Part shown: positions 4,245 through 32,209 of the stretch, piece by piece
Layout: the number at the start of each line of letters is the position of its first letter
Numbering within the stretch: the stretch's first letter is position 1
Virus record (IMG/VR): IMGVR_UViG_3300030616_000012
Location: 1-36,749 of that record
Origin: a virus
DNA: 36,749 nucleotides
Strand: one strand, 5' to 3'
Notes under the pieces: model-generated
The model's database searches: none
Seen by the model: only the letters and a program-made list of their open reading frames with translations
Told to the model about the DNA's origin: nothing
Translations under genes and position numbers: made by a program

Positions 4245-4490
4245 ATGGAATTTAATGAAATAATTGAAAAAATTGAAGCAGCAATCCCAGACGATGCCGG
4301 AACGCCGATGATACGGTATAATCAAAACTGGCGTTATCCGCACCTTGGCGATGACCAGAAGTCATGCCCGCTGCTGGATTTTATGCTTCAAATGGAATAC
4401 CGGTCAGGCACGTTGATATTTGTACCCGACAGAATTAATAAAATGAATTTACAGGACCGCAACAAGGAACCGCAAGGGGGAGTTAAATGA
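4245..4490 (+). CDS. Hypothetical protein (81 aa)
   Basis: This small acidic protein starts at ATG 4245, 8 bases after the previous gene, and overlaps the protease start by 4 bases (ATGA). It has no transmembrane segment, Cys pair or known motif. The QNWRYPHLGDDQKSCPLLDF region looks structured. The position just upstream of the prohead protease suggests a head-region role, but this is context only. Confidence 0.6.
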   Translation: MEFNEIIEKIEAAIPDDAGTPMIRYNQNWRYPHLGDDQKSCPLLDFMLQMEYRSGTLIFVPDRINKMNLQDRNKEPQGGVK

Positions 4491-5986
4491 AATTTTTCGA
4501 CATTCGGAAGTACGATTCATCGGCATTTTTCAGCGCAAAGCGTGTCATTGATATTTCACCGGAAGAAGGTATCAGGGCGAAGGTCGGGAACCTGGTGCTG
4601 GATCCTGACGGCAAGCCCGTCATTGAATCCTATTTATTCGATGCTGAACGGTTTTCAAAGGAACAGGCTGAAGCATGGGTTGGCAAATACGGCAATTATA
4701 CGCTTGAAGGGCTGCTGAAATTGCATGAGGATATAGACGTAAATGACCGGAAAAGCAAGAAGGAAGTCAAGTATTATAAAAGCAAGATTGTCAAGATAGA
4801 CAAGGAAAATCATATCGCGTATGCGCAGATATCAACCGCTGACCAGGACCGTGACAAGGAAGTGCTTCCGACTGATTCATGGAAGAAGCACAGGAAATAC
4901 TATGAAAATCATCCTGTTCTGGTATCAAGCCATAATTACTTTGAACTCCGCAGCCAGATCGGTGAAGCCGTTGAAGTCGATTGGGACACATTGACATTCG
5001 GGTTCAAATGGTATGTCAATGAAGGCAATCCCGAAGCGGATTGGGGCTGGAAACTTGCCGAGAAGGGCATGGCCATGTTCAGCGTGGGCTTTATCCCGCA
5101 TAAGAGATTGAAAGGCGATGCTATCCCCGAAGAATACCGGAAAGGCGAACCCAGCGCCGTATTGCCTGAAAATGAATTGCTTGAAGTCAGCCAGGTTGTT
5201 GTTGGTTCGAACCGCGGGGCATTGCAGTGCAGCATTGACAAGCCCAGCAAGGACCATCTGCAATTCATCAGCGATATTGTCACCACGTTCAAGGATATAC
5301 CTGACCTGGAAGCGCTTGAAAAGGTTGCCCCTGGTTCAAAGCCATATCCGAATGAGCATGCCTGCCGGCTGCACAGCCCTGATGATTACAAGACATGCCG
5401 CAGAGATACCAAGAAATCTGATGGGAAGGAATATTCGGTATTATACTGCCAGCGCAAGGATGACGAAAAGAAATGGGAAGAGCAGGCGTACCGGTATAAT
5501 AAGGATAAGTGGACAGAGGACCAGGCGAAGAAGCATTGCGATGCTGTCGGCGGGAAATTCGAAGCAGCGAAGCCGGAAAAATCCAAAGCAGAATATGACT
5601 GCGAATGTATCGATTGCGGGCATACGATGAAATCGGACAGCCATTGCAAGGACCTGAAATGCCCGAAGTGCGGCGGCCAGATGCGGCGTGCTGAACGGCC
5701 AGGACCTGGACAGAACTCAATAACAGCCGACAGTTTCATAATCGAGCCGCTTGCAGTAAAGAATATGAAGGACCTGACAGAGATTGTCGCTATATGGAAG
5801 GAAGGGCGGGTGCTGTCAGACAAAAACAGGGGAATCGTAAAATCAGCGATTGAAAATATCAGCAAATGCGCGGAAATGTTGACAGGCCTTCTTGCTTTAA
5901 CTAATCCTAAAGACGGGGGTGATAAACCGAAGGCCGTCAGTACCGATCCCGAAATCACTGATTTTTTAAACAAGACAAAAAAATAA
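4487..5986 (+). CDS. Prohead maturation protease with Cys-rich C-terminal extension (499 aa)
   Basis: Residues ~100-255 look like an HK97-type (U35) prohead protease: strand KIVKIDKENHIAYAQIST, a probable catalytic His in SSHNYF (~147), and the serine motif AMFSVGFIPHK (~197). The protease cleaves capsid N-termini during head maturation. It is about 250 aa longer than a usual protease. At ~285 begins PYPNEHACRLHSPDDYKTCR, continuing to WEEQAYRYNKDKW, a small conserved domain seen attached to phage head proteins. A zinc ribbon follows at ~370-400 (CECIDCGHT then KCPKCGGQM), then a helical tail. It sits directly upstream of the capsid gene, as expected. The added domains may serve as a scaffold or delta region (inference). 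Confidence 0.85.
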   Translation: MKFFDIRKYDSSAFFSAKRVIDISPEEGIRAKVGNLVLDPDGKPVIESYLFDAERFSKEQAEAWVGKYGNYTLEGLLKLHEDIDVNDRKSKKEVKYYKSKIVKIDKENHIAYAQISTADQDRDKEVLPTDSWKKHRKYYENHPVLVSSHNYFELRSQIGEAVEVDWDTLTFGFKWYVNEGNPEADWGWKLAEKGMAMFSVGFIPHKRLKGDAIPEEYRKGEPSAVLPENELLEVSQVVVGSNRGALQCSIDKPSKDHLQFISDIVTTFKDIPDLEALEKVAPGSKPYPNEHACRLHSPDDYKTCRRDTKKSDGKEYSVLYCQRKDDEKKWEEQAYRYNKDKWTEDQAKKHCDAVGGKFEAAKPEKSKAEYDCECIDCGHTMKSDSHCKDLKCPKCGGQMRRAERPGPGQNSITADSFIIEPLAVKNMKDLTEIVAIWKEGRVLSDKNRGIVKSAIENISKCAEMLTGLLALTNPKDGGDKPKAVSTDPEITDFLNKTKK

Positions 5987-6011: not shown

Positions 6012-7214
6012 ATGGATCCGAAAGATTTAATGACGATGACGAAGGAAGAGTTTAATGAACTGAAGCGCGTCGAAGCGGAAGCCAAGAAGATATTGGCTGA
6101 AAAAGATGCCCAGGAAAAGGATGCCATCAAGAAGGAAGAACTTGAAAAGATGGTGAATGCTATTGTTGACAAGATAGCGCCGAAGGCGAAGCCGATTGAG
6201 TTTGTCAATGACATACCCGAACAGCCGGAAGCAGGCAAGGAATACAAGAAATTCGGCGATTTCATGCGGCTTGTCAGGTCAGGTGATCCCGCAATAAAAA
6301 CGTACCTGTCAACCACGGGCGCACAGGGTGGATATAACATCCCGCAGACATGGGTTCCGCAGATAATCAACAGGATCAATGAAGTTTCAGACATTTACGC
6401 AGGGCTGAAGCAGGTCATTGAAGTTGTTGGCAGTCAGGTGAATTTGCAGTCAATCCTGACCGATATCACGGTATCATGGTCAACTGAAGCGGCAACGAAG
6501 TCCGAAACGAAGCCGACATTTTCAACGGATGCGCTGTCATTACGGTTCCTGTATGCAATGATTACGCAGACGAATGAGCATGAAGTCGAAACCATGCTGA
6601 ATACCGAGAATTTTCTGATGAATCTTGTTGCGCAGAACATGGCGCTTGAAATGGAAAACCAGGTATTCAACGGCGCGGCTGCACCATTCACAGGGCTTCT
6701 GAACGCGGCACTTCTGGCGAATGCACCTATTGCCGGCGCTAATCTGGCATACGATGACCTTGTTGACTGTCAGAATAACGTTCTGATGCTTGAATTCTAC
6801 CGCAAAAACGCCATGTGGTATCTGACCAGGAACGCACTGAAGATAATCATGAAACTGAAGGATAACAATGGCCTTCCTATTTGGCGGCTGAATAACCCGA
6901 TGGGCGGGCAGTTGTCGGATATCCTTGGTTCACCTTACAAGATAGCAACACAGATTACCGATGCGACAGCAACCGGTGGAGTGACAACGATATATTACGG
7001 TGACCTGAATTCCACTATCTTCAAGGGCAGGCGTGCGGGCCAGCCGGACACGATCAACGTACTGTTCAGCAGGGAAGCAGTGGTTGATAACGGTGCCGGT
7101 GGAGTAACGCATTCGTATTTCTCGCAGAACAAGTCAGGGTGGAGGTTCGAGAAGGAAGAAGGACTGCTTGTCGGGCTGTTAAACGGCATGAGCAGGCTGG
7201 ACAACGTGAAATAA
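6012..7214 (+). CDS. Major capsid protein, HK97 fold (400 aa)
   Basis: This is the coat protein that forms the icosahedral shell. Residues ~1-65 are a highly charged helical segment (KEEFNELKRVEAEAKKILAE), like the scaffolding delta domain removed by the protease in relatives. From ~95 the HK97 pattern follows: LSTTGAQGGYNIPQTWVPQI, the E-loop and spine region, MALEMENQVFNGAAAPFTGLL, and the C-terminal KSGWRFEKEEG. An AAAAAGGAG ribosome site precedes ATG 6012. The gene lies 25 bases after the protease, the classic order portal-protease-capsid. Confidence 0.93.
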   Translation: MDPKDLMTMTKEEFNELKRVEAEAKKILAEKDAQEKDAIKKEELEKMVNAIVDKIAPKAKPIEFVNDIPEQPEAGKEYKKFGDFMRLVRSGDPAIKTYLSTTGAQGGYNIPQTWVPQIINRINEVSDIYAGLKQVIEVVGSQVNLQSILTDITVSWSTEAATKSETKPTFSTDALSLRFLYAMITQTNEHEVETMLNTENFLMNLVAQNMALEMENQVFNGAAAPFTGLLNAALLANAPIAGANLAYDDLVDCQNNVLMLEFYRKNAMWYLTRNALKIIMKLKDNNGLPIWRLNNPMGGQLSDILGSPYKIATQITDATATGGVTTIYYGDLNSTIFKGRRAGQPDTINVLFSREAVVDNGAGGVTHSYFSQNKSGWRFEKEEGLLVGLLNGMSRLDNVK

Positions 7215-7248: not shown

Positions 7249-7383
7249 ATGTCAGATGATAAAAGGAAGGATCCCCAGGAACCCGATAATGAAAATGACG
7301 GTCCATCATCTGGCAATAAGCACAAGGGGATAAAAAACAAGAAGGACAAGATGGTCAAAAAATCCTACAATAAGGGAGTGTGA
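7249..7383 (+). CDS. Small charged hypothetical protein (44 aa)
   Basis: ATG 7249 follows an AAGGCGGTG ribosome site by about 8 bases. The protein is almost entirely hydrophilic: acidic in the first half (DDKRKDPQEPDNENDG) and Lys-rich in the second (KHKGIKNKKDKMVKK). This bipolar, disordered composition could suit a capsid-associated or scaffold-like peptide, but no family is recognised. It ends 5 bases before the next start. Confidence 0.55.
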   Translation: MSDDKRKDPQEPDNENDGPSSGNKHKGIKNKKDKMVKKSYNKGV

Positions 7384-7388
7384 ATACG

Positions 7389-7847
7389 ATGAAAAAAGCA
7401 TTATTCATTGCAGTGTTGCTCATGCTGGGTATCGCGATTCTGCCGGCAGTATCTATGGCAGAGAACCTTGAAAGCATCGTTGTGCATAGCGTTTCAACTT
7501 TCACGGTTTCCGGTGACGATTACAACTGGAACGCCAATCCATTAGTGATTTCTTCCACGGCGAAGAAGTCGCTGATCAAGGAACTGGACATTTCAGTTGA
7601 TGTGACGAATGCCACGCAGATTGTAACATTATGGGATGGGTGGTCATTAAACACTTCATCTGCTAATGTGGCAAGGATATGGGAAATCAGGATCCCTTCC
7701 AATACCACATCGACAAGCGGGGCCAACGTGGTTTACAGCAAAACATTTCGGTACGGGGACCGCGGTTTCCTGAAGGCTGATTATGGTCTTGCGGTTACAA
7801 AGTCCAGCACGATTGGCAACGTGACTGTCAGTATTCAGTACAAATAG
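7389..7847 (+). CDS. Signal-peptide protein downstream of capsid (152 aa)
   Basis: The N-terminus is a textbook Sec signal peptide: MKK, a hydrophobic core ALFIAVLLMLGIAIL, and cleavage predicted after AVSMA (~24). The mature part is Thr/Ser/Val-rich with alternating hydrophobics, suggesting an all-beta protein. Its place after the capsid gene would suit a decoration or head-fibre protein, but export does not fit cytoplasmic assembly. An in-frame GTG at 7380 lies too close to the AAGGGAG site, so ATG 7389 is preferred. A terminator follows. Confidence 0.75.
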   Translation: MKKALFIAVLLMLGIAILPAVSMAENLESIVVHSVSTFTVSGDDYNWNANPLVISSTAKKSLIKELDISVDVTNATQIVTLWDGWSLNTSSANVARIWEIRIPSNTTSTSGANVVYSKTFRYGDRGFLKADYGLAVTKSSTIGNVTVSIQYK

Positions 7848-7875
7848 CGTGCTGTTGGTTTAGCAATATGAACCT

Positions 7876-7913
7876 GAAGGGGCAAGGTTCAAGCCCTTCC
7901 CCTTCTTGGTTTT
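7876..7913 (+). terminator. Intrinsic terminator after capsid operon segment
   Basis: The inverted repeat GAAGGGGcAAGG / CCTTCCCCTTC (7876-7905) gives an 11-bp stem with one bulged C and a 7-base loop, followed by TTGGTTTT. It may lower expression of the signal-peptide genes downstream relative to the capsid. No promoter with good matches is visible between it and 7934, so downstream genes probably depend on read-through. Confidence 0.7.
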
Positions 7914-7933
7914 AAAACAGGGGGTATGGAAGC

Positions 7934-8335
7934 ATGAAATTAAAACACTTTTTTATCTTGGTTTTACTGGCATTGATAATCTTTATCCTTCAATTGACTG
8001 CCAATGCCCAGGTCAGGGATTTCGCAAATCGCGATTATACCGTATGGGCGACAACCATTGCCCCGACAACGGTTGGCGTGTACCAGCCAGGGCGCAGATA
8101 TTACCTGGTAACGAATGAATCCCTGAATTATAATGTCAGGCATGCGACGTTCCCGATAACTGTTGCGCAGTTGGGCACGGCAATGCAGGGGCTTCTGTTG
8201 ACCAGCAATGGCGGGCACTGGGAAGATGGATGGAATGTCTATCAGTCAACGTATTGGGTTATTATATCATCGCTGGGATGCGGCGGCACGGAAACACCTA
8301 TCACTGCACCGATAACGTATAGACAGCGGTATTAA
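7934..8335 (+). CDS. Signal-peptide protein (133 aa)
   Basis: It begins MKLKHFF followed by a long hydrophobic core (ILVLLALIIFILQLT) and ANAQ, a good signal-peptidase I site near residue 25. The mature ~108 aa are beta-like (DYTVWATTIAPTTVGVYQPG, a YLVTNESLNYNV stretch) and contain no known catalytic motif. It is the second of four consecutive genes with signal peptides or a membrane anchor after the capsid gene. Function unknown; a surface-exposed or secreted virion-related role is inferred from context. Confidence 0.72.
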   Translation: MKLKHFFILVLLALIIFILQLTANAQVRDFANRDYTVWATTIAPTTVGVYQPGRRYYLVTNESLNYNVRHATFPITVAQLGTAMQGLLLTSNGGHWEDGWNVYQSTYWVIISSLGCGGTETPITAPITYRQRY

Positions 8336-8347
8336 AAGGAAGGTATC

Positions 8348-9034
8348 ATGAAAAAAACAATATTATATGGTATTTTACTATTATTAATCGGTATATCCCC
8401 TGTTTATGCCGGTTATGCGTGGGGCGAAATACCAGATGTTGATGCAGTGACATCCGACTCAATAGCGGTATTGAATGCGGGCATTACTGCCGATGACGGT
8501 ATTGTCGAGATTATCCCTGACGGTACTGACTGGACAGCAGGATTCGGTCCGAGCAGCACAACCTTCCGCACGGTTGTTTTATCATCCCAGGTATGCGGAA
8601 CGCTTATAACATCATACGGGTACAATTCAAGCAGCGCAACGGAAATCACGGCAGTCGGCCAGGCTGAAAGCATTAAAAGCACAACGGTTGCACCGACGAC
8701 GATGTGTTCCCATTTTGATTCCCCTGGCAATGGGAAATTACGATATACCGGCAAGCACGGGATGTTTATTGATATATCTGCTAATAATTCATTGAATCTT
8801 ATATCAGGATCGGCGGCTGTTGCCGAAACAAGGCTATATAAAAATGACACATGGATTGATGGCATAAGGAATTATGGGTATATTTATAATTCCGGTGACT
8901 GGTCGTCAATACCATTATTCGGCACGATATGGATGGAACCGAATGATTATGTTTCGGTATGGGTTATAAATAGGTCAAATACCGATAATATAGGCACAAT
9001 GGCTGGGCAGATAAAGGCTTCAGCGCCGAAATAA
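8348..9034 (+). CDS. Signal-peptide protein, beta-rich (228 aa)
   Basis: The signal peptide is MKKTILYGILLLLIGISPVYA, with cleavage before GYAWGE (~21). The mature part has many short strands with Gly/Ser/Thr turns and ends with a WMEPNDYVSVWVINRS pattern that recalls jelly-roll decoration or fibre-head proteins. An AAAGGAAGG ribosome site precedes ATG 8348. It is tightly coupled to the next, similarly built gene; the two may be distant paralogues (both start with a signal peptide ending YAG and close with a strand-rich segment). No enzyme motif seen. Confidence 0.72.
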   Translation: MKKTILYGILLLLIGISPVYAGYAWGEIPDVDAVTSDSIAVLNAGITADDGIVEIIPDGTDWTAGFGPSSTTFRTVVLSSQVCGTLITSYGYNSSSATEITAVGQAESIKSTTVAPTTMCSHFDSPGNGKLRYTGKHGMFIDISANNSLNLISGSAAVAETRLYKNDTWIDGIRNYGYIYNSGDWSSIPLFGTIWMEPNDYVSVWVINRSNTDNIGTMAGQIKASAPK

Positions 9035-9042
9035 GGAGCATT

Positions 9043-9690
9043 ATGAAAAGAATAATATTATCAATTTGTATTCTGTTGTTGTTGGGCGGTTGGATTTATG
9101 CCGGATTCGGGACCGGCGATCCTGCCAATGTCAAAGCAACAATAACCGATCCTGACGGGTATATTGCCGAGATTGACAATTTAACGCAGTCAATGCGGAC
9201 TGTCGGTATTATCCACGCGGAAGTCCATGACGGGCACATGTATAATTCAAGCCATTTATGGACATCACTTGCCGACGGCGCGACAGCGACAATGCTATTA
9301 TATGTCACAACGACAACAATGCATGCTGTCTTTGCTATTGCCTGCGGCGGCGATGCTTATATATATTTATATGAAGGCGCGAATTATCACAGCAGCGGCA
9401 CGGCAATCACTCCTATTAATCTGAACCGCACAACAAGGGCCGGCACTTCAATTGAAAAAACATATCACAGCCCGCAGGGTGTCTATGGCGGCACGCTGCT
9501 ATTCAATGGGTTTATTGCAGGCGGCTCCGGTTCAGGCCCACAAAGCACGGCATCGGGTGGCAATGTCCGCATGGATGTGGAATGGATATTCAAGCAAAAT
9601 GAAGATTATATCCTTGCTGTCCAAAATGTTTCCGGTGACGCGCACCCGTTCTCAATAGATATAGAATTTTACGAGGAAGAAAACTACTAA
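9043..9690 (+). CDS. Signal-peptide protein resembling phage capsid-decoration family (215 aa)
   Basis: The signal peptide (MKRIILSICILLLLGGWIYA) is followed by a mature region whose pattern I recognise from phage virion proteins encoded near the capsid: HAEVHDGHMYNSSHLW, then YLYEGANYHSSGTAITPINL, NRTTRAG, RMDVEWIFKQNEDYILAVQN and a final FYEEENY. Such proteins normally lack a signal peptide. It starts 8 bases after the previous gene with an AAGGAG site. It is likely a decoration or fibre-like beta protein that has gained an export signal (inference). Family membership is from memory of the pattern, not from a search. Confidence 0.7.
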   Translation: MKRIILSICILLLLGGWIYAGFGTGDPANVKATITDPDGYIAEIDNLTQSMRTVGIIHAEVHDGHMYNSSHLWTSLADGATATMLLYVTTTTMHAVFAIACGGDAYIYLYEGANYHSSGTAITPINLNRTTRAGTSIEKTYHSPQGVYGGTLLFNGFIAGGSGSGPQSTASGGNVRMDVEWIFKQNEDYILAVQNVSGDAHPFSIDIEFYEEENY

Positions 9691-9692: not shown

Positions 9693-9929
9693 ATGTCTAT
9701 TCAATTAATGATTAGTGCCGGCTTTTTGTTGTCAGCAATAGGATTGATTTTTGGAACTGGCGGTTTTTATTTTCTTACCCGATATCAGTTGCGGGAACTT
9801 GAAAAAGATATTGCCGATATAAAGAATAATCATTTGCATACGATACAGGCAGATATGAGAACGATGAAACTTGAACAGGAAGCCCAGGGCAAGGACATCG
9901 CATCCCTGAAGGCAAAGGCAGATTTATGA
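9693..9929 (+). CDS. Membrane-anchored coiled-coil protein (78 aa)
   Basis: An N-terminal hydrophobic segment (SAGFLLSAIGLIFGTGGFYFL, ~8-28) is followed by a heptad-rich helix (LRELEKDIADIKNNHLHTIQ through the C-terminus). This topology resembles XhlA/hemolysin-like or spanin-like phage membrane proteins. However, it lies between head and connector genes rather than in the lysis cluster. It overlaps the connector start by 4 bases. Role unknown. Confidence 0.6.
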   Translation: MSIQLMISAGFLLSAIGLIFGTGGFYFLTRYQLRELEKDIADIKNNHLHTIQADMRTMKLEQEAQGKDIASLKAKADL

Positions 9930-10831
9930 CACTTAAAGCAAACGCATTAATCACCCAGGATGAATTGATTGACAGCATGGACTTGAACCGCGATGAAATA
10001 CGGAAGGCGTGTTTCCGCATATATAACGGTTCAGGTGATGCCACGGCCGCAACCATTACAGTGTCGGCAAATACATTGACGTTAGTTGTTACCGGCGGCG
10101 TGAATGCCCATAATACAGCCTTTGACCTGACCGATGCCGCATACGATACCATTGGCGAGTTATTGACGGCAATTGAGGCCCTGGCGAAAGGCTGGGTTGT
10201 AAATAGGAAATGCAGCGCCGCTTTCACATCCGCTGACCTTTACAATATACCGGCGACAAGCGTGTTGACATCGCAAGAGGAATTGACACTTGAAGGATTT
10301 AACGGGTTGATTCTCGATAATCTCATTAATGCCGCATCGGAATTCGCTGAACAGTTTACAAGGCGAACCCTGGTATCAACAGCGCACACGGAATATCCTG
10401 ACGGTGGGGAAGCGAAATATATGAAGTTGAAGAATTTCCCTATTATAAGCATTACCAGCCTGCATTCCTGGGATCCGGTAATGCAGGCGACAATCCAGGC
10501 ATGGACAGAACATACTGACTATGAAGCCGAGTATTCAAGCGGGATGCTATACTCCGCGGGCGGGTGGAAGTCAAATAGGAATGATGTCAAGGGCTGGAAG
10601 ATAGTCTATACTGCCGGATATGCTGCCGCAAGCATGCCAGAGGACCTGAAGGAAGGCGTGAAACAGTTATGCAAATATCTATATACTATCAGGCAGAAAC
10701 AGGGCTATTCTTCAACAAGCAATGGCGTACTGACTACTAACTACAAGAAAGCTGAATATAAAGTCATGGGCATATATCTGCCGCTTGACCTGGTTGCATT
10801 CCTTATACCTTACCGCAAGAGGGACTTTTAA
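9926..10831 (+). CDS. Head-tail connector (adaptor) protein with N-terminal beta insert (301 aa)
   Basis: The C-terminal ~190 aa match gp6/gp15-type head-tail connectors that dock on the portal: an initial helix LDNLINAASEFAEQFTRRTL, strand MKLKNFPIISITSL, an RNDVKGWKIVYTAGY loop, then helices PEDLKEGVKQLCKYLYTIRQ. The first ~110 residues add a separate Thr/Val-rich beta domain (ATITVSANTLTLVV to KGWVVNRKCSA) placed inside the usual N-terminal part. The protein is therefore about 100 aa longer than typical. Start ATG 9926 overlaps the previous stop. Confidence 0.75.
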   Translation: MTLKANALITQDELIDSMDLNRDEIRKACFRIYNGSGDATAATITVSANTLTLVVTGGVNAHNTAFDLTDAAYDTIGELLTAIEALAKGWVVNRKCSAAFTSADLYNIPATSVLTSQEELTLEGFNGLILDNLINAASEFAEQFTRRTLVSTAHTEYPDGGEAKYMKLKNFPIISITSLHSWDPVMQATIQAWTEHTDYEAEYSSGMLYSAGGWKSNRNDVKGWKIVYTAGYAAASMPEDLKEGVKQLCKYLYTIRQKQGYSSTSNGVLTTNYKKAEYKVMGIYLPLDLVAFLIPYRKRDF

Positions 10832-12062: not shown

Positions 12063-13724
12063 ATGGCACCAGGACTTGGATTCAAGGGCGGTATTTTGGG
12101 GATTGGCGAAGAGGTTGTTTACGGGACAGCGGTTGCAAGGGACAGATTTATTGAAATGAATTCTGACGGGCTTGATACTGCGGAAGGCCGAATCCATAGT
12201 GCAGCGATTCCTGATATTGCAGCCGACAGCGACGAGGTTGCCCAGGGGGCTGTCGATCCCGCCGGTTCAATAGAATTTGAAATGCGATACGAGGGGATGG
12301 AACGCCTTCTGAAGCACGCAATGGGTTCCGTCGATACCGTTGAGGTTGCAAGTTTCGTTGTCGGCGCAACAAACAAATTCCTTGATATTAAAGAGGATGG
12401 CGGCGGGGACCTGAATGCAACGCTGACCGAAGCGACATATAAAATGGGCGAACGCGGGCACTATGAAATCGATGCGACGAATAACAAAATCAATTTCAAG
12501 GAAGATGGCGGGGCTGAATTGACGGCAACGCTGGCGGCGGCAGAATACGCAACGGCTGCCCTGCTTGCTGCACAGATTAAGACACAACTGGAAGCGGCCG
12601 GTGCTGGCACTTATACGGTGGCGTATTCAGCGACAACGAATAAATTTTCAATCACAGCGACAGCAGGCGTGACAACGTTCCAAATCTTATGGAAAACCGG
12701 AACAAACGGTGCAGACGGCACTGACACGCATCCTGGCGCGCTTCTGGGCTTCCTTGACACAAAGGATGGCATTGATGATACGTCAACTACAAGCGATTAC
12801 AGCACATTCGATCCCGATGGAACACTATGCGCAGAGATTAAAACACAACTTGAAGCAGCTGGTGCGGGAACCTATACAGTAACGTTCAGCAACACAACGA
12901 AGAAGATTACCATTGCGGTTGCAGGCGTGATAGCCGCCACGCAGTTTCTTTGGAAAACAGGCACACATGGTTCAGATGGTACAGATACCAGCGCAGTGAC
13001 ATTGCTTGGATTTACTGCCGGCGCAGACGGTGCAAGCGTTGCTTCAGTTACCGCTGACAGCGCGGTTGTGACGGTATTCGACAGCACGTTCAAGCTGGCT
13101 GACGAATTGCCGACAGGATTGACACTTGAAGTCGACAGGGATTTGAGAGGATTTACAACCGAAGGCTGCAAGATAGGCAACATATCATTTGCACAGGATT
13201 CAGCCGGCTTTTTAATCGGAACCATTGAAGTGATAGGCGAAGATACCAATGCAACAGCGGTCACTGCTTCAACATTGCCGACAAAGCCGCTTGTTGATTT
13301 CGCTGATTTTAGTTTCACCTATAATGGCGCGATAATCCTGACAAGCTTTGATTTTACCTTGAATAACAACCTGAAGGGTGACCGCAGGTTCATTGGTTCC
13401 AGGTTAAGATATGAACCCAAGCGGGCCGGAAAACGTGATGTCACGGGATCATTCGCGGCTGAATATGAGAATGAGGACCAGTATGATGATTACAGGGCCA
13501 TGACTTCCAGGGCGATTGTCGGGACAGCAACGGGTGCGGTAATCAAGGCAGCAATCACATACACTCTAACAATCACATTCCCTGTCTGCAAGCTGACCAA
13601 GGGAGTGCCATTGATGTCTGATGAAAGCGTTATAATGTATGAACACGAATTCAAGGCATATTCGACAGACAGCTCAACACGCGAACTGACCATCGTTATT
13701 AGAAATACACTATCTCGCGTATAA
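12063..13724 (+). CDS. Major tail tube protein with tandem internal repeats (553 aa)
   Basis: The N-terminus (FKGGILGIGEEVVYGTAVAR) and C-terminal half (FDFTLNNNLKGDRRFIGSRL, then DVTGSFAAEYENEDQYDDY and a last MYEHEFKAYSTD) match phage tail tube proteins, which stack in hexameric rings. The usual length is about 300 aa. The excess lies in the middle, where a beta module repeats: KEDGGGDLNATL at ~117 and KEDGGAELTATL at ~150; AQIKTQLEAAGAGTYTV at ~171 and AEIKTQLEAAGAGTYTV at ~257; then LWKTGTNGADGTD and LWKTGTHGSDGTD. DNA identity between copies is still clear, implying fairly recent duplication. Such modules may decorate the outside of the tail. Confidence 0.82.
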   Translation: MAPGLGFKGGILGIGEEVVYGTAVARDRFIEMNSDGLDTAEGRIHSAAIPDIAADSDEVAQGAVDPAGSIEFEMRYEGMERLLKHAMGSVDTVEVASFVVGATNKFLDIKEDGGGDLNATLTEATYKMGERGHYEIDATNNKINFKEDGGAELTATLAAAEYATAALLAAQIKTQLEAAGAGTYTVAYSATTNKFSITATAGVTTFQILWKTGTNGADGTDTHPGALLGFLDTKDGIDDTSTTSDYSTFDPDGTLCAEIKTQLEAAGAGTYTVTFSNTTKKITIAVAGVIAATQFLWKTGTHGSDGTDTSAVTLLGFTAGADGASVASVTADSAVVTVFDSTFKLADELPTGLTLEVDRDLRGFTTEGCKIGNISFAQDSAGFLIGTIEVIGEDTNATAVTASTLPTKPLVDFADFSFTYNGAIILTSFDFTLNNNLKGDRRFIGSRLRYEPKRAGKRDVTGSFAAEYENEDQYDDYRAMTSRAIVGTATGAVIKAAITYTLTITFPVCKLTKGVPLMSDESVIMYEHEFKAYSTDSSTRELTIVIRNTLSRV

Positions 13725-18676: not shown

Positions 18677-19316
18677 TGCGAATGTAAACGCTGGCGATAC
18701 TATTCTTGCAACGCAGTATAATAATTTGCGGACTGATGTGTTGGCTGGGCATGACCATATCACAGCCGGCGAAGGGGCTGCCCTGGGTACTGGCGCAGTC
18801 AGCGGTGATATTATTGCCGACGAAGGTATTGGCGCAGATAAACTTGGTGACGGTGCGACATTTAAAAATACACAGGAAAGAATATTCACAATAACACCTT
18901 CCGATATGATTTGCAACGATGAAGCCGGGCCGTATGATATAGGGGCGAATCCTCATTCATTAAGAAATGGCGATACGAGTTCAATATCATATTATGCTGG
19001 TGTGCATTTACCTCACGCAGCAATAGTAACATCAATAAGGGTTTATTGGTATCGCGATGATGCTTTAGCATCTGGCGATGCGCTTCTTGCGCGACACGAT
19101 TTTTCTGGTGGCACGCCTGATACTATGGGCGATGCTGACAGCGATGCAACAACAGGGTATCATTCTGTTATTGATTCGTCAATTGACAATGCAACAATTG
19201 ATAATACATCATATACTTACTTTTTGCGACTGATATTGGATCCGAATGATAATGCTGATGATGTTGCTTTTATGGGCGCGGTTATAAGATATACCGTGCA
19301 GAAACCTTTACCATAA
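18666..19316 (+). CDS. Fibre-like tail protein (216 aa)
   Basis: The N-terminal NAGDTILATQYNNLRTDVLA followed by GHDH is a pattern common in phage fibre or receptor proteins. A Gly/Ala segment with GADKLGDGATF comes next, as in collar or fibre shaft parts, then a ~130-aa beta domain containing SIRVYWYRDDALASGD and YFLRLILDPNDNADD. Unlike the next three genes it has no signal peptide. It probably forms part of a tail fibre or tip. Confidence 0.6.
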   Translation: MPNSANVNAGDTILATQYNNLRTDVLAGHDHITAGEGAALGTGAVSGDIIADEGIGADKLGDGATFKNTQERIFTITPSDMICNDEAGPYDIGANPHSLRNGDTSSISYYAGVHLPHAAIVTSIRVYWYRDDALASGDALLARHDFSGGTPDTMGDADSDATTGYHSVIDSSIDNATIDNTSYTYFLRLILDPNDNADDVAFMGAVIRYTVQKPLP

Positions 19317-19348
19317 TGTTGTGCAGGCCAAAATACAAGGGGTTATTA

Positions 19349-20704
19349 ATGAAAAAACTATTTTTATTATTAGCATTGCTGATGTTTCCGTCGATATTAT
19401 TTGCCGGCTGGGTTCAGACGTACAAGGTCATTTATAGTTCATCGGCTGAAACATCATTATTCATTATGGTTGATGATTTAAAGATTGGAACATCCACGTC
19501 AACCTGGACAATTGAATTATTTGGTTCAAGCGGTGTTGTGCATTGCAATTATATTGAATGCAGCACGGCAACGTTTGACATGATATACGGCAACGGTCAG
19601 TATATCACTAATCTGTCAACCGCACTGCCGACAGCGGAATTGCAATTGCTTGGTCAATGTACCGGTCATCTTTATGTCGCGGACCAACTTATTGGACAGA
19701 CAACGGGGCACCTATATGTCGTTGACCAACTAATCGGGCAATGCACGGGCTATGAGTATAATGCAAGAATCGCACAGGACCAGGCAATTGGAATCACAAC
19801 AGCCACTATTCAGGCATTGGCTACAAGCAATAAAACAGAAATTGATGCCTTGCACGTTGCGACAGCGACAGAGATTACTGCCCGAATAGCCGGCGACCAG
19901 TTGCTTGGACAGTCAACGACGTATGTATGGAATATGCAGAATTATGCTGGCAATCCTGGCGATGTATGGAAAAAATTCGGTAGTTCTGATTCATGGGGAA
20001 ATGATGATGTTGGTGCTGCTGGAATAGATACGGACTGCCGTATATCAACTGGAATAATAACGTTCCTTGAAGGCGGCACAGAAGGCGATATGATACAATA
20101 TGATGGTGCTGCCTGGGTGAAGGTTCCAAAGGGGGCAGCCGGCCAGGTTTGGACAATGCACGCCGATTCCGCATCATGGACAACTGCTGCATCCGGCGGT
20201 TCCGGTAAGGCGGTAATACATTTGAATACCGAAAACGTACATCTGCCGAATAGCGGATTCGCCCGACCGGATAAAGTAGTGCGGACATACGGGGTAGATC
20301 ACGTCTTAAAATTTGAAGCGCTTGCCACCGGCACAACGGAGTCTGCATATTTTACGGATTCCTGCCCTGCGTTTTATGGCGGCGGTGCCTGGACTATAAC
20401 TTCTTATTGCGTATTAGAAACAACGGAAACAGGCACGACGGCGCAAATTACCATCGGCGTGCGGGCAAAAGAGCACGATGAGGCGTGGGATGCGGCCTTC
20501 ACAACTATCGGGACAATAGATGTAGTGCCGACAGGCACAGCAGAGGATTTATTGGTTGATGTGCTAACAGGGGGGTGGGGTTCCGACCTTCCGACTGCGG
20601 GCGATTTACTGGAATTCGAAGTAACAGTCAAGCCGGTAAATTGTACTTTTGTATCGTTCGACGGGGATTTACCAGTAATAGACATTAAGATCGAAGAAGA
20701 TTAA
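19349..20704 (+). CDS. Signal-peptide fibre-like protein with GQxTGHLYV repeats (451 aa)
   Basis: ATG 19349 follows AAGGGG by 6 bases; the 11 upstream in-frame codons are dropped. A strong signal peptide (MKKLFLLLALLMFPSILFA) ends before GWVQTY. At ~100-140 a 13-residue unit repeats three times (QLLGQCTGHLYVA, QLIGQTTGHLYVV, QLIGQCTGYEYNA), with a weaker fourth copy QLLGQSTTYVW after a helical spacer. A Gly/Ala-rich middle and a beta-rich C-terminal domain (~300-451) follow. Repeats plus a terminal domain are fibre-like, yet the export signal is unexpected. Confidence 0.68.
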   Translation: MKKLFLLLALLMFPSILFAGWVQTYKVIYSSSAETSLFIMVDDLKIGTSTSTWTIELFGSSGVVHCNYIECSTATFDMIYGNGQYITNLSTALPTAELQLLGQCTGHLYVADQLIGQTTGHLYVVDQLIGQCTGYEYNARIAQDQAIGITTATIQALATSNKTEIDALHVATATEITARIAGDQLLGQSTTYVWNMQNYAGNPGDVWKKFGSSDSWGNDDVGAAGIDTDCRISTGIITFLEGGTEGDMIQYDGAAWVKVPKGAAGQVWTMHADSASWTTAASGGSGKAVIHLNTENVHLPNSGFARPDKVVRTYGVDHVLKFEALATGTTESAYFTDSCPAFYGGGAWTITSYCVLETTETGTTAQITIGVRAKEHDEAWDAAFTTIGTIDVVPTGTAEDLLVDVLTGGWGSDLPTAGDLLEFEVTVKPVNCTFVSFDGDLPVIDIKIEED

Positions 20705-20717: not shown

Positions 20718-21011
20718 ATGAAAAAGGTTATTCTATTAGGGTTTATCGTTTTGTTATGCGTGGGGGTGGTTTCTTCTGATACCGATGTTTCAACGTCGGA
20801 AAAGGATAATTTTATCGAACTGCTTGCACGAAAAGAAAAGGTATCTAATTTATTGCAGGCAGAACTTGACGAACTGAATGCGGAAAACGAAGCGGCGTAC
20901 AATACTTACCTGGCCGCATTACAGGCAAATAAAGACACCCATCAACCGGATATCGTAAAATTCCGTAATGAATTAGAAACTATTAATAGCGGATTAAAAG
21001 AATTTAAGTAA
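20718..21011 (+). CDS. Signal-peptide coiled-coil protein (97 aa)
   Basis: The N-terminus MKKVILLGFIVLLCVGVVSS is a signal peptide or membrane anchor. The Cys at ~14 lacks a lipobox, so a lipoprotein is unlikely. The rest is helical with heptad character (LQAELDELNAENEAAYNTYL). It abuts the next gene exactly. The topology would fit a periplasmic coiled coil, for example an inner spanin, although lysis genes begin 1.3 kb later. Confidence 0.6.
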   Translation: MKKVILLGFIVLLCVGVVSSDTDVSTSEKDNFIELLARKEKVSNLLQAELDELNAENEAAYNTYLAALQANKDTHQPDIVKFRNELETINSGLKEFK

Positions 21012-21731
21012 ATGAGAAAACTAATTTTTATTACCCTTCTATTATTATATAGCAGTGGGCATTCCGCGTGGTATAACAATTCAGGCGCAGGCGAGGATGG
21101 CTTTGTTAAAACATCAGGACTTACAACCTGGTATAAAACCGGAAAAAGTGCTTTTACTGTTATGGGCTGGGTATATCTCGACGATACCACAGACGATTGC
21201 TTCATTTTGCCGTATGACTACTCGTGGGCAGAATGGGTTTTTAGACTATCGAAAACTACATCAAAAAGAATCAGCACGCATTTAGCAGGAACTAATCCAG
21301 GCGGTTGGGTAGAAGGCACGGCAGAATTAGAAAATGATACCTGGTATCATCTTGCCTATACTTATGACGGTTCCCATAGAAGGACATATATAAATGGCGT
21401 AATGGATATAAACCAGGCAGAAACAGGAACGACAACTGGTAATGCAGGAATAACATTAGGCGTTCTGCTTGGAAGTTATGCAAAAGGTAGCAATTTTTCT
21501 GTATGGAATTATGCTAAAAGTGCCGCAGAAATAGAAGAAGCAATGATGCAACGATTAATATCCGACGAGCGTTGTATGGGTTTATGGTATTGCGATGAAA
21601 AAGTAATAAACGGAGCGCCTGGTGGTGTTATTATGCGAGATACATCCGGCAATGGCATACACCTTGACGAAAGGAATGCCGGCTCAATAACAAACGATAA
21701 TTATAGAGATGGCCCGCCAATACAGTGGTAA
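21012..21731 (+). CDS. Secreted LamG/concanavalin A-like lectin-fold protein (239 aa)
   Basis: A short signal peptide (MRKLIFITLLLLYSSGHSA) precedes a LamG-type jelly roll. Key signs are FTVMGWVYLDDTTDDC, a central WYHLAYTYDGSHRRTYINGV motif (~115), ITLGVLLGSYAKGSNFSVWN and WNYAKSAAEIEEAM, all in the order expected for Laminin_G_3 domains. These bind carbohydrate or surface polymers. In fibre clusters they often act in adsorption; with a signal peptide, this copy may instead act outside the producing cell. Confidence 0.75.
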   Translation: MRKLIFITLLLLYSSGHSAWYNNSGAGEDGFVKTSGLTTWYKTGKSAFTVMGWVYLDDTTDDCFILPYDYSWAEWVFRLSKTTSKRISTHLAGTNPGGWVEGTAELENDTWYHLAYTYDGSHRRTYINGVMDINQAETGTTTGNAGITLGVLLGSYAKGSNFSVWNYAKSAAEIEEAMMQRLISDERCMGLWYCDEKVINGAPGGVIMRDTSGNGIHLDERNAGSITNDNYRDGPPIQW

Positions 21732-23796: not shown

Positions 23797-23982
23797 GTGA
23801 ACGATTTCAGCAAAATGATATTTGACACAGCGGTTGCAATCAATAGGGCATACGCAAGAGGGCTGCAGGAAGGGAAAAGACTTGCAGAGAAAGAGGTATA
23901 TGTACCGGATGAAATGGCAGAACAGATTCACCTGGACAGGATTGAGGAACAGAAAAAATTGAAAAGGGATGGGGTGGAATAA
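23797..23982 (+). CDS. Small helical early protein (61 aa)
   Basis: GTG 23797 follows AAAGGGGGAAG. The sequence is one long amphipathic helix with charged ends (INRAYARGLQEGKRLAEKE), no Cys. It overlaps the nuclease start by one base, so the two are probably translated together. Function unknown. Confidence 0.6.
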   Translation: MNDFSKMIFDTAVAINRAYARGLQEGKRLAEKEVYVPDEMAEQIHLDRIEEQKKLKRDGVE

Positions 23983-26126
23983 TGCCATTACGCTGGTTTA
24001 TCTGCCCTGACAATACACGGATTGAATTCAAGGACTGCCTGAAGGAAGGCGGTTGCCGTATGGGTAGCCGGTGCGCTTCCAGGTCATATCTGCACATGGT
24101 ATCGCAAGACAGGGTGTGGACCGGCAAGCCGAGTTGCACGCAGTTGATACAGGGCACGATGTGCGCCTTCCTGAAGATAACAAAGGATTATGCGGTGTCG
24201 CCTGATGACCGCGCCTTTGCTATTCACGGGACCAAAGGGCACAAGAATCTTGAAAACGCCGGTGCTGATGATGAATATTCCGAATTAGAAATGCGGTTCA
24301 AGGAAGGGGATATTTCAGGGATTGCCGATGCTATCGAAAAAGAATGCGGCAGGATAATATTGAGTGATACGAAAACATCGGGATCGTTTAAAGTTGCCAA
24401 GGCCCTGGGCATAGTAATCAAGAAGGAAGAAACCGGCGAGGTTTACAAGTCAGGCAAGCGCAAGGGCGAACCGAAGATGCGGAATGTCATGGTCAGGGAT
24501 GAATCAGCCATTGACCGCTGGGAATGGGAATATCAGACAAATTTCTATCGTATGGAATATGAACGTGTTACCGGCAAGAAGATTGACGAAATCCGAATCA
24601 TGTGCGTTGTCAGGGATGGCAACACATATATTGCCAGGGGGCGCGGCGTATTCCGTAATGTCTATTATTTTAATATTCCTATCATGGAAGATAACGCTGT
24701 CAAGATATATTTTCAGACAAAAAAATTGCAGTTATTCAAGGCATTAAAACAGGGTTACTGGAATGATGCCTGCGATGCCAAGGAAAATTGGGATGGCGTT
24801 AAGTGTTCCAGGTATTGCGAGGTAGCAGAATATTGTAAATATGGGAAATATTTAAAAATCCAAAGAGAGGTGGAAGAAATGGCTATCAAGAATCTGTCAG
24901 AGGTCAGAAGGTTGCCAAGGCTTGGCAAAATCAGGCTTGGCATTAAGAAGTTATCTGCGAAGGGCAAGGAATATCCGGCTGAAGTTGATTACTTCATACT
25001 GGATCCCCAGACACCGATTGAAACAGAGAACAAGAAATTGATTGATGCGTTTCACAAGTTATATGGTGACAAGCCGAAGCAAATCAATATCATGTTCCCT
25101 GTTGCCGATAAAGACATATTTTTTGCGCAATTCTACAAGCGCTATGGTTCAGGCGCATCCCTGAAATGCAAGGGCGACGGAGTGATTGCGCATTGCGGCA
25201 CGGATGAATTTGCCAAGGGCCTGAAGGTTACAGGCAAATCAGACTTGGGGCTTCCTATCGTTGAGTGTCATGGCAAGGAATGCCCGTTCTATCAAAGCAA
25301 GCAGTGTTCGGAAGTCGGCACGCTTCAGGTATTGTTGCCCGAATTACCAGGTGCAGGGGTGTGGCAGATTGCAACCGGCTCATTCCATAGCATAGTCAAT
25401 ATCAATTCATGTATTGATTATATCAGGGCGGTTGCGGGCCGTGCGCACATGCTGCCGTTGAAACTTGAACGGCGGGAACAGGAAATCGCCTATGAAGGCA
25501 AGAAAAGCAAGCATTATATCCTTCATATCAATATGGATTTTGCGCTTGCTGACCTTCAGAAATTTGCATTGATTGATCCTTCGAAGGTGCTGCTTGAATT
25601 GCCTGAACCGGCAGTCACGGCAGAGGATATTGAAGTGCTGCCTGGTGGCGTTGAAGTTGTCAATAAAAATACAGGGGAAGTGACCGATCCGGCAGACACG
25701 GAAAGGCAGAAACCGCAGAATAAGGTTGAGCAGACGGCTGATGATGCGCCTTGGGATGAACCATCCGAAGAAGCCGAAACAGCGGGACCTGAACCAAAGC
25801 AGGGACCGGCAGCAACAGGCAAGCCCACGCCTGAACAGTTGGAAAAGCAGATTCAGGAAGAATACGCGAATGCCCTGGCGAAATATCCTGATATTGAAGG
25901 GGCGCACGTTGAGGTCATTGCAAAGAAAATCAAGGGGCTGCTGAAGGATGCCGGATATCTTGGCAAGAAAAAGCCTGGCGGGATGAATTACGAAACCATG
26001 CTGATTAAGTCTATGAATGACCAGGCAGAGAAGTACAGCAACCTGACCAGGAAGGAATTGACGATTTTATACGCACGCCTTGCGGGCGAAAAGGGTGATC
26101 CGACGGGGCTTTGCGTTGCATTCTGA
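23982..26126 (+). CDS. Cas4/RecB-like nuclease fused to Gp3-like (RDF-type) protein (714 aa)
   Basis: Residues ~1-290 have PD-(D/E)XK RecB-type motifs in order: GTKGHKNLE (~82-90), GIADAI (~113), SDTKT (~128) and YQTNFYRME (~185). A Cys cluster (DACDA then KCSRYCEVAEYC, ~262-283, plus N-terminal Cys residues) follows, as in Cas4/AddB iron-sulfur nucleases. From ~307, RRLPRLGKIRLGIKKL and EVDYFILD match the Gp3-like/recombination-directionality-factor-like family, with Cys pairs (CHGKECPFYQSKQC) that may bind metal. The last ~150 aa are low-complexity Pro/Glu plus a helical domain. A strong GAGAGGTGGAAG site precedes an in-frame ATG at 24879, so the second part (415 aa) can also be made alone. 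Likely role: phage recombination and replication. Confidence 0.7.
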   Translation: MPLRWFICPDNTRIEFKDCLKEGGCRMGSRCASRSYLHMVSQDRVWTGKPSCTQLIQGTMCAFLKITKDYAVSPDDRAFAIHGTKGHKNLENAGADDEYSELEMRFKEGDISGIADAIEKECGRIILSDTKTSGSFKVAKALGIVIKKEETGEVYKSGKRKGEPKMRNVMVRDESAIDRWEWEYQTNFYRMEYERVTGKKIDEIRIMCVVRDGNTYIARGRGVFRNVYYFNIPIMEDNAVKIYFQTKKLQLFKALKQGYWNDACDAKENWDGVKCSRYCEVAEYCKYGKYLKIQREVEEMAIKNLSEVRRLPRLGKIRLGIKKLSAKGKEYPAEVDYFILDPQTPIETENKKLIDAFHKLYGDKPKQINIMFPVADKDIFFAQFYKRYGSGASLKCKGDGVIAHCGTDEFAKGLKVTGKSDLGLPIVECHGKECPFYQSKQCSEVGTLQVLLPELPGAGVWQIATGSFHSIVNINSCIDYIRAVAGRAHMLPLKLERREQEIAYEGKKSKHYILHINMDFALADLQKFALIDPSKVLLELPEPAVTAEDIEVLPGGVEVVNKNTGEVTDPADTERQKPQNKVEQTADDAPWDEPSEEAETAGPEPKQGPAATGKPTPEQLEKQIQEEYANALAKYPDIEGAHVEVIAKKIKGLLKDAGYLGKKKPGGMNYETMLIKSMNDQAEKYSNLTRKELTILYARLAGEKGDPTGLCVAF

Positions 26127-26341: not shown

Positions 26342-26504
26342 TAATGTCGGGGAAGGGAAAATCACGTTCCAGGTCCCCTTGTCTGACCGTGACAAGATTA
26401 TTCTGCTGGCAGCCCTGACCGAAACGTGCCTGCAAGTTACGGTTGAAAAGGACAGCGAAACGGGGATTGTTATTGAAGAAGATAACCTGGGGGATATGGG
26501 ATGA
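26295..26504 (+). CDS. Small hypothetical early protein (69 aa)
   Basis: ATG 26295 lies 5 bases after GAGG; earlier in-frame starts at 26280 and 26283 are possible. The order PIKFKAAVHAVRVDNVGEGK then LSDRDKIILLAALT and VTVEKDS suggests a compact alpha/beta protein similar in style to small recombination-region phage proteins. It overlaps the DUF5131 gene by 4 bases. Confidence 0.55.
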   Translation: MEPIKFKAAVHAVRVDNVGEGKITFQVPLSDRDKIILLAALTETCLQVTVEKDSETGIVIEEDNLGDMG

Positions 26505-27130
26505 ATAAGACTAAAATTGAATGGTGCGATTATACCTGGAATCCGGTTATTGGTTGCAAGCGCGGATGTTCGTATTGTTACGCAAGGAAGATGAATGACC
26601 GGTTTCATTTCATATCAAAATGGGATGAGCCGGAATTGATTATTGATAGATTAAAAAATCCAAGAATGCCGAAGAAACCATCAAGGATATTTGTTGGTTC
26701 AATGTCAGATATATGTTATTGGCATGATTTCTGGGTTCTCGATGTGCTTAAAATAATCAATGAATATCCGCAACATACATTTATATTTTTGACAAAAGAT
26801 TCGCTTGCTTATGATAGACATAAATTCCCGTCAAACTGCTGGCTTGGCGTATCAGATATAGGCGACGGGAACCCAACAAAGACATTTTATACATATCAGG
26901 ATAATAAATTCGTATCATTCGAGCCGCTATTATCACGCCCAGAGCATACATTCAGATTCTATGTAAATCATGGTATCAAGTGGGTTATTGTCGGCGGCTT
27001 AACTCCGATGAATAAACATAAAAAAGAGTGGGTTGACGAAATAATTACATGGTGCAGGGCTGCACTCATTCCCATATTTTTGAAGCCCAATCTGCACTAT
27101 CCTGAAAAAATACAGGAGTTTCCGAAATGA
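26501..27130 (+). CDS. DUF5131 (phage Gp37/Gp68-like) three-Cys-motif protein (209 aa)
   Basis: The start TKIEWCDYTWNPVIGCKRGC is diagnostic of the DUF5131/Gp37-Gp68 family, with a radical-SAM-like CKRGCSYC motif at ~19-26. Downstream family blocks are present: SRIFVGSMSDI, THTFIFLTKD-like QHTFIFLTKD, WLGVSD, FVSFEPLL and KWVIVGG. The substrate is unknown. The gene is small for the family (often ~230-270 aa) and more AT-rich than the nuclease gene upstream. Its usual genomic partner TcmP is not seen in this window. Confidence 0.82.
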   Translation: MNKTKIEWCDYTWNPVIGCKRGCSYCYARKMNDRFHFISKWDEPELIIDRLKNPRMPKKPSRIFVGSMSDICYWHDFWVLDVLKIINEYPQHTFIFLTKDSLAYDRHKFPSNCWLGVSDIGDGNPTKTFYTYQDNKFVSFEPLLSRPEHTFRFYVNHGIKWVIVGGLTPMNKHKKEWVDEIITWCRAALIPIFLKPNLHYPEKIQEFPK

Positions 27131-27363: not shown

Positions 27364-27500
27364 AAACCGAACACTATTTTCCCGTATTTATTATGTTCTG
27401 CTATCTATGCGCGGCAATGGTTTATTTTTCAAAAGGGAATATCAAGCAGGGGCTTTACTGGATATTTGCGCTTGGGCTTGTCTGGGTGGTAACGTTTTAA
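27360..27500 (+). CDS. Small membrane protein, two helices (46 aa)
   Basis: ATG 27360 overlaps the previous stop. Two hydrophobic segments (YFPVFIMFCYLCAAMVYF and LYWIFALGLVWVVTF) flank a short basic loop SKGNIKQG. The TAA overlaps the methyltransferase ATG by one base. Small two-helix proteins with this FPVF...CYLCAAMVY pattern are common in phage early regions. Function unknown. Confidence 0.65.
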   Translation: MKTEHYFPVFIMFCYLCAAMVYFSKGNIKQGLYWIFALGLVWVVTF

Positions 27501-30287: not shown

Positions 30288-30475
30288 TGGACTTCAAAAA
30301 CCGCATACATAAATATATTATAGTCACTCCGGTTGAAGGCGGCTGGGTTCGGACAAAGCAGATTATCAGGGAACGGGATCCCCTGGGCGCGGTATTGCTT
30401 GCGCAGCCGATGTTCGAAGGACCGATTGCGGCGGTGAGGTTCAGTAAATTCAAGGGGTTATATGGATTATATTAA
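30287..30475 (+). CDS. Small hypothetical protein (62 aa)
   Basis: Start overlaps the previous stop by one base, and its end overlaps the methyltransferase start by 14 bases. HKYIIVTPVEGGWVRTKQII and GAVLLAQPMFEGPIAAVRFS suggest a small beta-rich fold. No Cys or membrane segments. Role unknown. Confidence 0.6.
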   Translation: MDFKNRIHKYIIVTPVEGGWVRTKQIIRERDPLGAVLLAQPMFEGPIAAVRFSKFKGLYGLY

Positions 30476-31742: not shown

Positions 31743-32209
31743 GAGAGATTAAATTCAGGTTAATACTTGATAATAAAATAGTTGGATATGAGAAATGGTA
31801 CGCAGGGAAACGTAATCCGCAGACGGGGTTGTGGGAGGCAGAGGATAGATGGCTATATTCAAAAGACGGCAAATACTGGAATCCGCAGTATATATATCAT
31901 CATAAAAAAGATATGTACACCGGACTCAAAATAAGAGATAAAGAGGTTTACGAGGGGGACATTATACAACTGAAGTGGGAAAGCGGTATTGACGATAACG
32001 ATAATCCCAAATATGAAACAGAAAATATATTAGTATATTGGGATGAGGATGCCTGTAATTTTTTGGTTCAATGGAGTGGTTTTGAATATGAAAAAATGGC
32101 GGTTGGATATGCGCCAGATTGGTGGGACAATGATGAAAATAGAATAGAGTTTGAAGTAATCGGCAACATATATGAGAATCCTGAACTATTGAAAGAGAGG
32201 AAACCATGA
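31739..32209 (+). CDS. YopX family protein (156 aa)
   Basis: The start MREIKFRLILDNKIVGYEKW, the MYTGLKIRDKEVYEGDIIQL motif (~60-80) and the end FEVIGNIYENPELL are the characteristic YopX (PF09643) pattern. The family is widespread in phages and its molecular function is not established. It overlaps its neighbours by 4 bases each way. AT-rich composition. Confidence 0.88.
   Translation: MREIKFRLILDNKIVGYEKWYAGKRNPQTGLWEAEDRWLYSKDGKYWNPQYIYHHKKDMYTGLKIRDKEVYEGDIIQLKWESGIDDNDNPKYETENILVYWDEDACNFLVQWSGFEYEKMAVGYAPDWWDNDENRIEFEVIGNIYENPELLKERKP

What the first reader, a model, noticed from the sequence alone, without database searches (positions are those of the whole stretch)
7389..9690. Run of signal-peptide proteins right after the capsid gene
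Seen: four of the genes after the capsid gene (7389, 7934, 8348, 9043) begin with clear Sec signal peptides (basic start, hydrophobic core, A-x-A-like site). The protein at 9043 otherwise looks like phage decoration/fibre-head proteins. Head proteins are assembled in the cytoplasm, so export is unexpected. Inference: these may be secreted into the periplasm or outside as decoys, coat the host cell, or be attached to virions after lysis.
Basis: partly seen in the sequence, partly recalled or inferred. Interest (0 to 1): 0.78.

Follow-up and report, generated by a model that had tools for sequence, protein, structure and literature searches.

The report
Phage surface proteins with export signals
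A tailed phage from an environmental sample appears to carry cell-export tags on several proteins that look like parts of its outer shell and fibres, which suggests that these parts are made outside the cell interior and might join the virus only when the cell bursts.

Summary
Four consecutive genes between capsid and head-tail adaptor genes (7389, 7934, 8348, 9043) start with Sec type I-like signal peptides; three more lie in the distal-tail region (19349, 20718, 21012). My rule (no SignalP available) of 49 window ORFs, against 7 of 1150 genes in 80 TerL-related IMG/VR loci. The 9043 and 8348 proteins belong to, or share a domain with, phage surface jelly-roll proteins whose relatives lack the signal: 0 of 43 readable relatives and 0 of 80, six 5'-truncated. 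The tag was probably added to ordinary appendage-type proteins. A second phage group supports export from head-module genes: its leader (residues 1-20) is only 2-9/20 identical between members while the rest is 124-131/147 identical, the usual mark of a cleaved signal peptide. What the exported proteins do is inferred: most likely stored in the periplasm and bound to virions at lysis, or coating the envelope. Signal peptides on phage genes of unknown function were already noted in Porphyromonas phages (PMC10367356). New variant; interest 0.62.

The parts
6012..7214 (+). HK97-type major capsid protein (landmark)
   Evidence: phrog_10 E 1.3e-32, Pfam Phage_capsid 4.6e-30
7389..7847 (+). SP1: signal peptide (residues 1-24) plus 128-residue mature protein of unknown family
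   Evidence: no relative in PHROGs, Pfam, NCBIfam, PDB sequences or phages
7934..8335 (+). SP2: signal peptide (residues 1-25) plus 108-residue mature protein of unknown family
   Evidence: no significant relative
8348..9034 (+). SP3: signal peptide (residues 1-21) plus mature protein with a C-terminal C1q-like jelly-roll; relatives include post-capsid proteins of Zobellviridae
9043..9690 (+). SP4: signal peptide (residues 1-20) plus jelly-roll protein of the phrog_5335 family
9693..9929 (+). small protein with one N-terminal membrane segment and a coiled-coil-like tail, packed tightly with its neighbours
   Evidence: gaps 2 and -4 bases
9926..10831 (+). head-tail adaptor (landmark; shows that SP3 and SP4 lie in a tightly packed structural operon)
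   Evidence: phrog_442 E 1.1e-13; spacing
19349..20704 (+). SP5: signal peptide (residues 1-19) plus 432-residue fibre-like protein with repeats (internal start of ORF 19316-20704)
   Evidence: no relative in phages
20718..21011 (+). SP6: short helical-looking protein with signal-like N-terminus, cleavage site unclear
21012..21731 (+). SP7: signal-like N-terminus plus LamG/concanavalin-type lectin domain
   Evidence: PF13385 E 1.8e-15; matches cyanophage virion structural proteins, E 5e-4

Best explanation
The phage encodes a set of appendage-type proteins (jelly-roll decoration or fibre-head proteins after the capsid gene, a fibre and a lectin after the tail genes) to which Sec type I signal peptides have been added. 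They are made late with the other structural proteins, go through Sec into the periplasm, lose the signal peptide and fold there. At lysis they meet finished virions and bind to heads and tail tips, so that the virion is completed outside the cytoplasm. Shown: gene order, signal-like N-termini, family or domain relations of SP3, SP4 and SP7, lack of the signal in relatives of SP3 and SP4. Strongly inferred: export and cleavage. Inferred without a test: periplasmic storage and binding to virions at lysis.
For: Signals far above background. SP3 and SP4 relatives are found in structural modules of other phages: MEP401_gp39, ICBM2_42 and CRP-5 gp45 lie between capsid and adaptor or tubular-protein genes, MEP301_gp38 between TerL and connector. 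None of the relatives read has a signal, so the signal looks like an addition to a virion-type protein and not like a secreted host gene that drifted in. In SP4 the predicted cut leaves the mature N-terminus near where the relatives start. SP3 to the adaptor gene are spaced by 8, 2 and -4 bases, so they are probably co-expressed with head genes. Independent group (7 IMG/VR contigs): protein gene between TerL and portal with a variable leader (2-9/20 identical) and conserved remainder (124-131/147) in the four members compared pairwise; the seven contigs' genes all pass the rule, though in L304 the rule puts the cut earlier. Decoration proteins can bind finished heads: T5 pb10 with DNA-filled heads in vitro (PMC5292684, passages), Dec with mature P22 capsids in vitro (PMC7602432, passages).
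Against: No evidence that any of these proteins is in the virion of this phage. Decoration and fibre proteins of known phages work without export (general knowledge), so a benefit must be assumed. SP1, SP2 and SP5 have no recognised relatives. Cysteine is not enriched in the mature parts (15 of 1367 residues against 36 of 4766 in 13 other structural proteins, p 0.24), so there is no sign of a need for disulfide formation, except perhaps in SP5 (8 of 432). In the second group the signal-bearing protein is not shown to be virion-associated either.
Confidence: 0.42

Rival explanations
1. The proteins are exported but act on the host envelope and not on virions: binding domains of appendage type coat the cell surface, mask receptors, exclude other phages or keep progeny from sticking to debris.
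For: Export signals as above; binding-type folds (C1q-like, jelly-roll, LamG lectin). The authors of a study of Porphyromonas gingivalis phages read signal-peptide genes of unknown function as having the potential to modify the host outer membrane (PMC10367356, passages).
Against: Seven different proteins at two places inside the structural modules is more than a typical exclusion gene set (general knowledge). None of the seven was called as a lipoprotein.
Confidence: 0.28
2. The N-termini are uncleaved signal anchors that tether the proteins to the inner membrane, for instance as an assembly platform.
For: A one-pass membrane protein (9693-9929) lies in the same operon.
Against: Apolar runs of 5-15 residues are short for anchors; Ala stands at the proposed -1 position in six of seven (read from the sequence). 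In the second group the abrupt change of conservation after residue 20 argues for cleavage. A periplasmic domain could not touch capsids in the cytoplasm.
Confidence: 0.1
3. The leaders are not for Sec but are removed by the phage's own prohead protease, as the Porphyromonas study suggests for signal-like capsid N-termini.
For: A gene between portal and capsid (4487-5986) lies where the protease usually is; the suggestion is in PMC10367356.
Against: Leaders also occur in the tail region; relatives of SP3 and SP4 have no leader; protein 4487-5986 gave no protease family match.
Confidence: 0.06
4. Captured host surface-protein genes (moron-like cargo) that change the lysogen's surface.
For: LamG and fibre-like domains also occur in cellular surface proteins (general knowledge); a Gp3-like recombination directionality factor domain at 23982-26126 hints at a temperate relative.
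Against: SP3 and SP4 have phage relatives at structural-module positions and lie in the same strand and operon as head genes.
Confidence: 0.08

Closest known systems
phrog_5335 family, e.g. Methylophilales phage MEP301 gp38; also Roseobacter phage RDJL6 UFK26757
   Same: SP4 aligns over nearly the whole mature part (31% and 26% identity)
   Different: these relatives start directly with the mature domain and have no signal peptide
Post-capsid proteins of Zobellviridae (SIO1 gp29, CRP-5 gp45, ICBM2_42, MEP401_gp39; phrog_38624)
   Same: C-terminal jelly-roll of SP3 and, in MEP401, ICBM2 and CRP-5, the place between capsid and adaptor or tubular-protein genes
   Different: no signal peptide; different N-terminal half
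Decoration proteins T5 pb10 and phage L Dec
   Same: the proposed action, binding to finished heads from outside
   Different: no sequence relation shown; not known as exported: a term search of the review PMC7602432 gave no mention of signal peptide, secreted or periplasm
Signal-peptide genes of Porphyromonas gingivalis phages (proposed Nixviridae)
   Same: phages encoding several proteins with signal peptides, five of unknown function following the Bacteroidetes Q rule (PMC10367356, passages)
   Different: not described in the passages read as appendage families; whether they sit beside the capsid gene was not checked
L160 group (7 IMG/VR contigs, this work)
   Same: signal-bearing protein gene inside the packaging/head module, with a leader that evolves like a cleaved signal
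   Different: one such gene, between TerL and portal; protein of a family that matched nothing in PHROGs or phages
Filamentous phage coat proteins, SAR endolysins, spanins
   Same: known phage proteins that use Sec (general knowledge)
   Different: membrane-spanning coat or lysis proteins; the seven here have no second membrane segment and no lysis domain

Membership tests
Sec type I (SPase I) secreted proteins | basic n-region, apolar h-region of about 7-15 residues, small residues at -3 and -1 | tested here: met
   seven N-termini; SP6 has an unclear site, SP7 has H at -3 and passes the caller only without the ribosome-site condition
Sec type I (SPase I) secreted proteins | cleavage in the cell | not testable with these tools
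   indirect only: the second group's conservation border after residue 20
phrog_5335 (SP4) | profile match | tested here: met
   E 1.8e-7, residues 43-213
phrog_38624 / SIO1 gp29 family (SP3) | direct profile match | tested here: not met
   SP3 did not match phrog_38624; only similarity of residues 128-206 and a fold match to CRP-5 A0A646QWC8, E 1.3e-10, so a related domain but not filed as a member
LamG/ConA-like lectins (SP7) | PF13385 above the curated cut-off | tested here: met
   57.8 bits against 27.6
Capsid decoration proteins | bound to the outside of the capsid in virions | not testable with these tools
   no virion data; position and fold only
Filamentous-type coat proteins | signal peptide plus membrane segment in the mature protein | tested here: not met
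   best 17-residue hydropathy of the rest -0.23 to 1.52 for the seven
Phage lipoproteins (o-spanin, exclusion lipoproteins) | lipobox with Cys at +1 | tested here: not met
   none of the seven was called as type II

The most novel reading that the evidence does not exclude
A tailed phage that builds its virion in two compartments: the DNA-filled head and tail in the cytoplasm, and the surface appendages of both head and tail tip in the periplasm after Sec export, so that decoration and fibre attachment happen only at lysis.
Probability: 0.33. Interest if true: 0.88.

Novelty: new variant of a known kind. Interest (0 to 1): 0.62.

Why it matters
Tailed-phage virions are thought to be finished in the cytoplasm (general knowledge), and absence of signal peptides has been used as support for phage origin of diversified binding proteins (PMC6199706, passage). 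If appendages are exported first, assembly continues outside the cytoplasm, phage surface proteins can use the periplasmic folding environment, and the same proteins could shield the dying cell from progeny and rivals. It also warns against discarding signal-bearing genes as non-virion genes in annotation.

Tried and rejected
Single-protein scans of IMG/VR with SP4 and the capsid protein and of genome contigs with the portal found no relative. So this phage has no close relative in what was searched, and conservation of its own signals could not be tested. TerL relatives reach about 47-50% identity. In the loci held there were two weak matches to the capsid protein and none to SP1, SP2, SP5, SP6 or SP7.

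Host search: A7 in 5 genomes and 198 of the phylum of G003, SP5 in 290 genomes twice (the listed handles are nearly the same, so the two draws look like one phylum) gave nothing. Host unknown; no tRNA gene.

A wider SP4 alignment (A7) returned the same 44 loci as A1. A scan for signal genes up to 10 kb downstream of TerL without the ribosome-site condition gave 20 hits in 700 genes of 122 loci; most of the genome hits look like host genes to me, and L160 was the only one in a clear phage head module that I followed up. That scan was given all 80 IMG/VR loci but only 50 of the 80 genome loci.

Structure: the SP4 model is of middling confidence (pLDDT 66.6); its PDB neighbours (best Z 10.0, GOLD domain; HFTV1 turret Z 7.6) do not point to a function. 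The SP3 model is confident only from about residue 100 of the mature part (mean pLDDT 55.8). PDB sequence searches with A8, A9, SP1 and SP2 gave nothing. Cysteine enrichment was tested and not found. Literature searches for signal peptides on decoration, head-fibre or structural proteins (open-licence PMC only) listed no paper that I could see describing this arrangement, apart from the related remark in PMC10367356; other papers read by term search did not bear on it.

Full report
What was checked. The window is a 36,749-base virus record of IMG/VR, possibly a fragment. Its left part is a tailed-phage structural module: TerL (apparently cut at the window start), portal-MuF fusion, a gene at the protease position, HK97-type capsid protein, head-tail adaptor, neck protein, tail genes. 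The four ORFs of the finding lie between capsid and adaptor.

The signals are real as sequence features. The N-termini at 7389, 7934, 8348 and 9043 have a basic start, an apolar core and a small-residue site. Three more were found at 19349, 20718 and 21012. With one rule applied everywhere, 9 of 49 window ORFs are called, against 7 of 1150 in 80 TerL-related IMG/VR loci and 17 of 1495 in 80 genome loci. Six of the nine are in my set of seven; 21012 is called only without the ribosome-site condition; 16208, 32606 and 35019 are calls that I leave out of the set. Shuffled window proteins give 0.26 calls on average, at most 2 in 1000 rounds. The rule is mine and is cruder than SignalP.

What the proteins are. 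SP4 (9043) matches phrog_5335, Methylophilales phage MEP301 gp38 (E 1e-6) and 44 IMG/VR loci. It is predicted as a beta sandwich that I read as a jelly-roll (mean pLDDT 66.6); its best matches in BFVD are uncharacterised proteins, the named ones among the first 20 all of tailed phages or tailed archaeal viruses, with query TM-scores of 0.53-0.68. SP3 (8348) shares its C-terminal domain with proteins that sit between capsid and adaptor or tubular-protein genes in MEP401, ICBM2 and CRP-5, and its model matches a CRP-5 protein of 188 residues, which I take to be gp45, and many phage proteins annotated with collagen or C1q domains. SP7 has a LamG-type lectin domain similar to virion structural proteins of cyanophages. 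SP5 looks like a fibre with repeats, by eye. SP1 and SP2 have no recognised relatives.

Relatives do not have the signal. For SP4, 0 of 43 loci with a readable start have a signal at any in-frame start (one further locus, L054, is truncated; many of the 43 are near-identical copies). For SP3, 0 of 80 (6 cut at the 5' end; the search reported 116 relatives and kept the best 80). The named phage relatives also lack it. In the SP4 alignment the relatives' first residues stand where the leader and the first mature residues stand in the window protein. This is what one expects if a signal peptide was attached to a protein that elsewhere is made in the cytoplasm.

A second, independent case. Screening the TerL loci pointed to L160, in which a 167-residue protein with a signal-like leader is encoded between TerL and portal. 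Seven IMG/VR contigs carry it; in those compared the order is TerL, this gene, portal, then a gene and a capsid-like gene, as far as each contig reaches. Among four divergent members the leader is 2-9 of 20 identical while the remainder is 124-131 of 147 identical, and leader changes fall on first and second codon positions in a larger share than in the remainder. All seven pass the rule (for L304 the rule sets an earlier cut). A leader that changes freely but keeps its character, with a sharp border, is the usual evolutionary mark of a cleaved signal peptide. This supports that a head-module gene of a tailed phage can be under selection for export. It does not show what the window proteins do.

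Mechanism. SP3, SP4, the small membrane protein and the adaptor gene are spaced by 8, 2 and -4 bases, so they are probably made together with the head proteins. After export they would wait in the periplasm and could bind virions at lysis; decoration proteins of T5 and L bind finished heads in vitro (passages). The main rival is action on the cell envelope. Sequence alone cannot separate the two.

What is known. A study of Porphyromonas gingivalis phages reports signal-peptide genes in phages, including capsid proteins with signal-like N-termini and five genes of unknown function (PMC10367356, passages). A study of phage DGR proteins states that phage targets lack signal peptides, unlike surface-displayed bacterial ones, and takes this as support for phage origin (PMC6199706, passage). 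I saw no paper in the open-licence PMC library that describes decoration or fibre proteins with Sec signals in a tailed phage (search listings).

Verdict. Observation confirmed and extended; export is likely (I put it at about 0.85); function open. New variant of a known kind.

Noticed in passing
window 9693-9929 and 32206-32613: Both start with a membrane segment followed by a similar stretch (FYFLTRYQL and FYVGTRYQL) and a charged, coiled-coil-like tail; the first has a weak match to Rz-like spanins (E 0.034).
   Followed up: no
window 4487-5986: Gene at the prohead-protease position carries cysteine pairs like a zinc ribbon in its C-terminal half (weak matches) and no recognised protease domain.
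   Followed up: no
window 12063-13724: Tail protein (phrog_290) with internal near-repeats (TYTVAYSATTNK / TYTVTFSNTTKK, WKTGTNGADGTDT / WKTGTHGSDGTDT), so probably a duplicated domain.
   Followed up: no
window 27407-28750 and 30462-31244: Two DNA methyltransferase genes of the same PHROG (phrog_67) within 4 kb.
   Followed up: no
window 26501-27130: Matches PADLOC candidate models PDC-M41B and PDC-M30B (E 5e-34 and 1e-33) and phrog_2045.
   Followed up: no
L160, L300, L301, L302, L303, L304, L306: The residue after the proposed cut is Q in all seven, reminiscent of the Bacteroidetes Q rule cited in PMC10367356; GC of these contigs is 0.56-0.58 and the host is unknown.
   Followed up: partly
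window 7249-7383: 44-residue, highly charged ORF between capsid gene and SP1, 5 bases before SP1.
   Followed up: no
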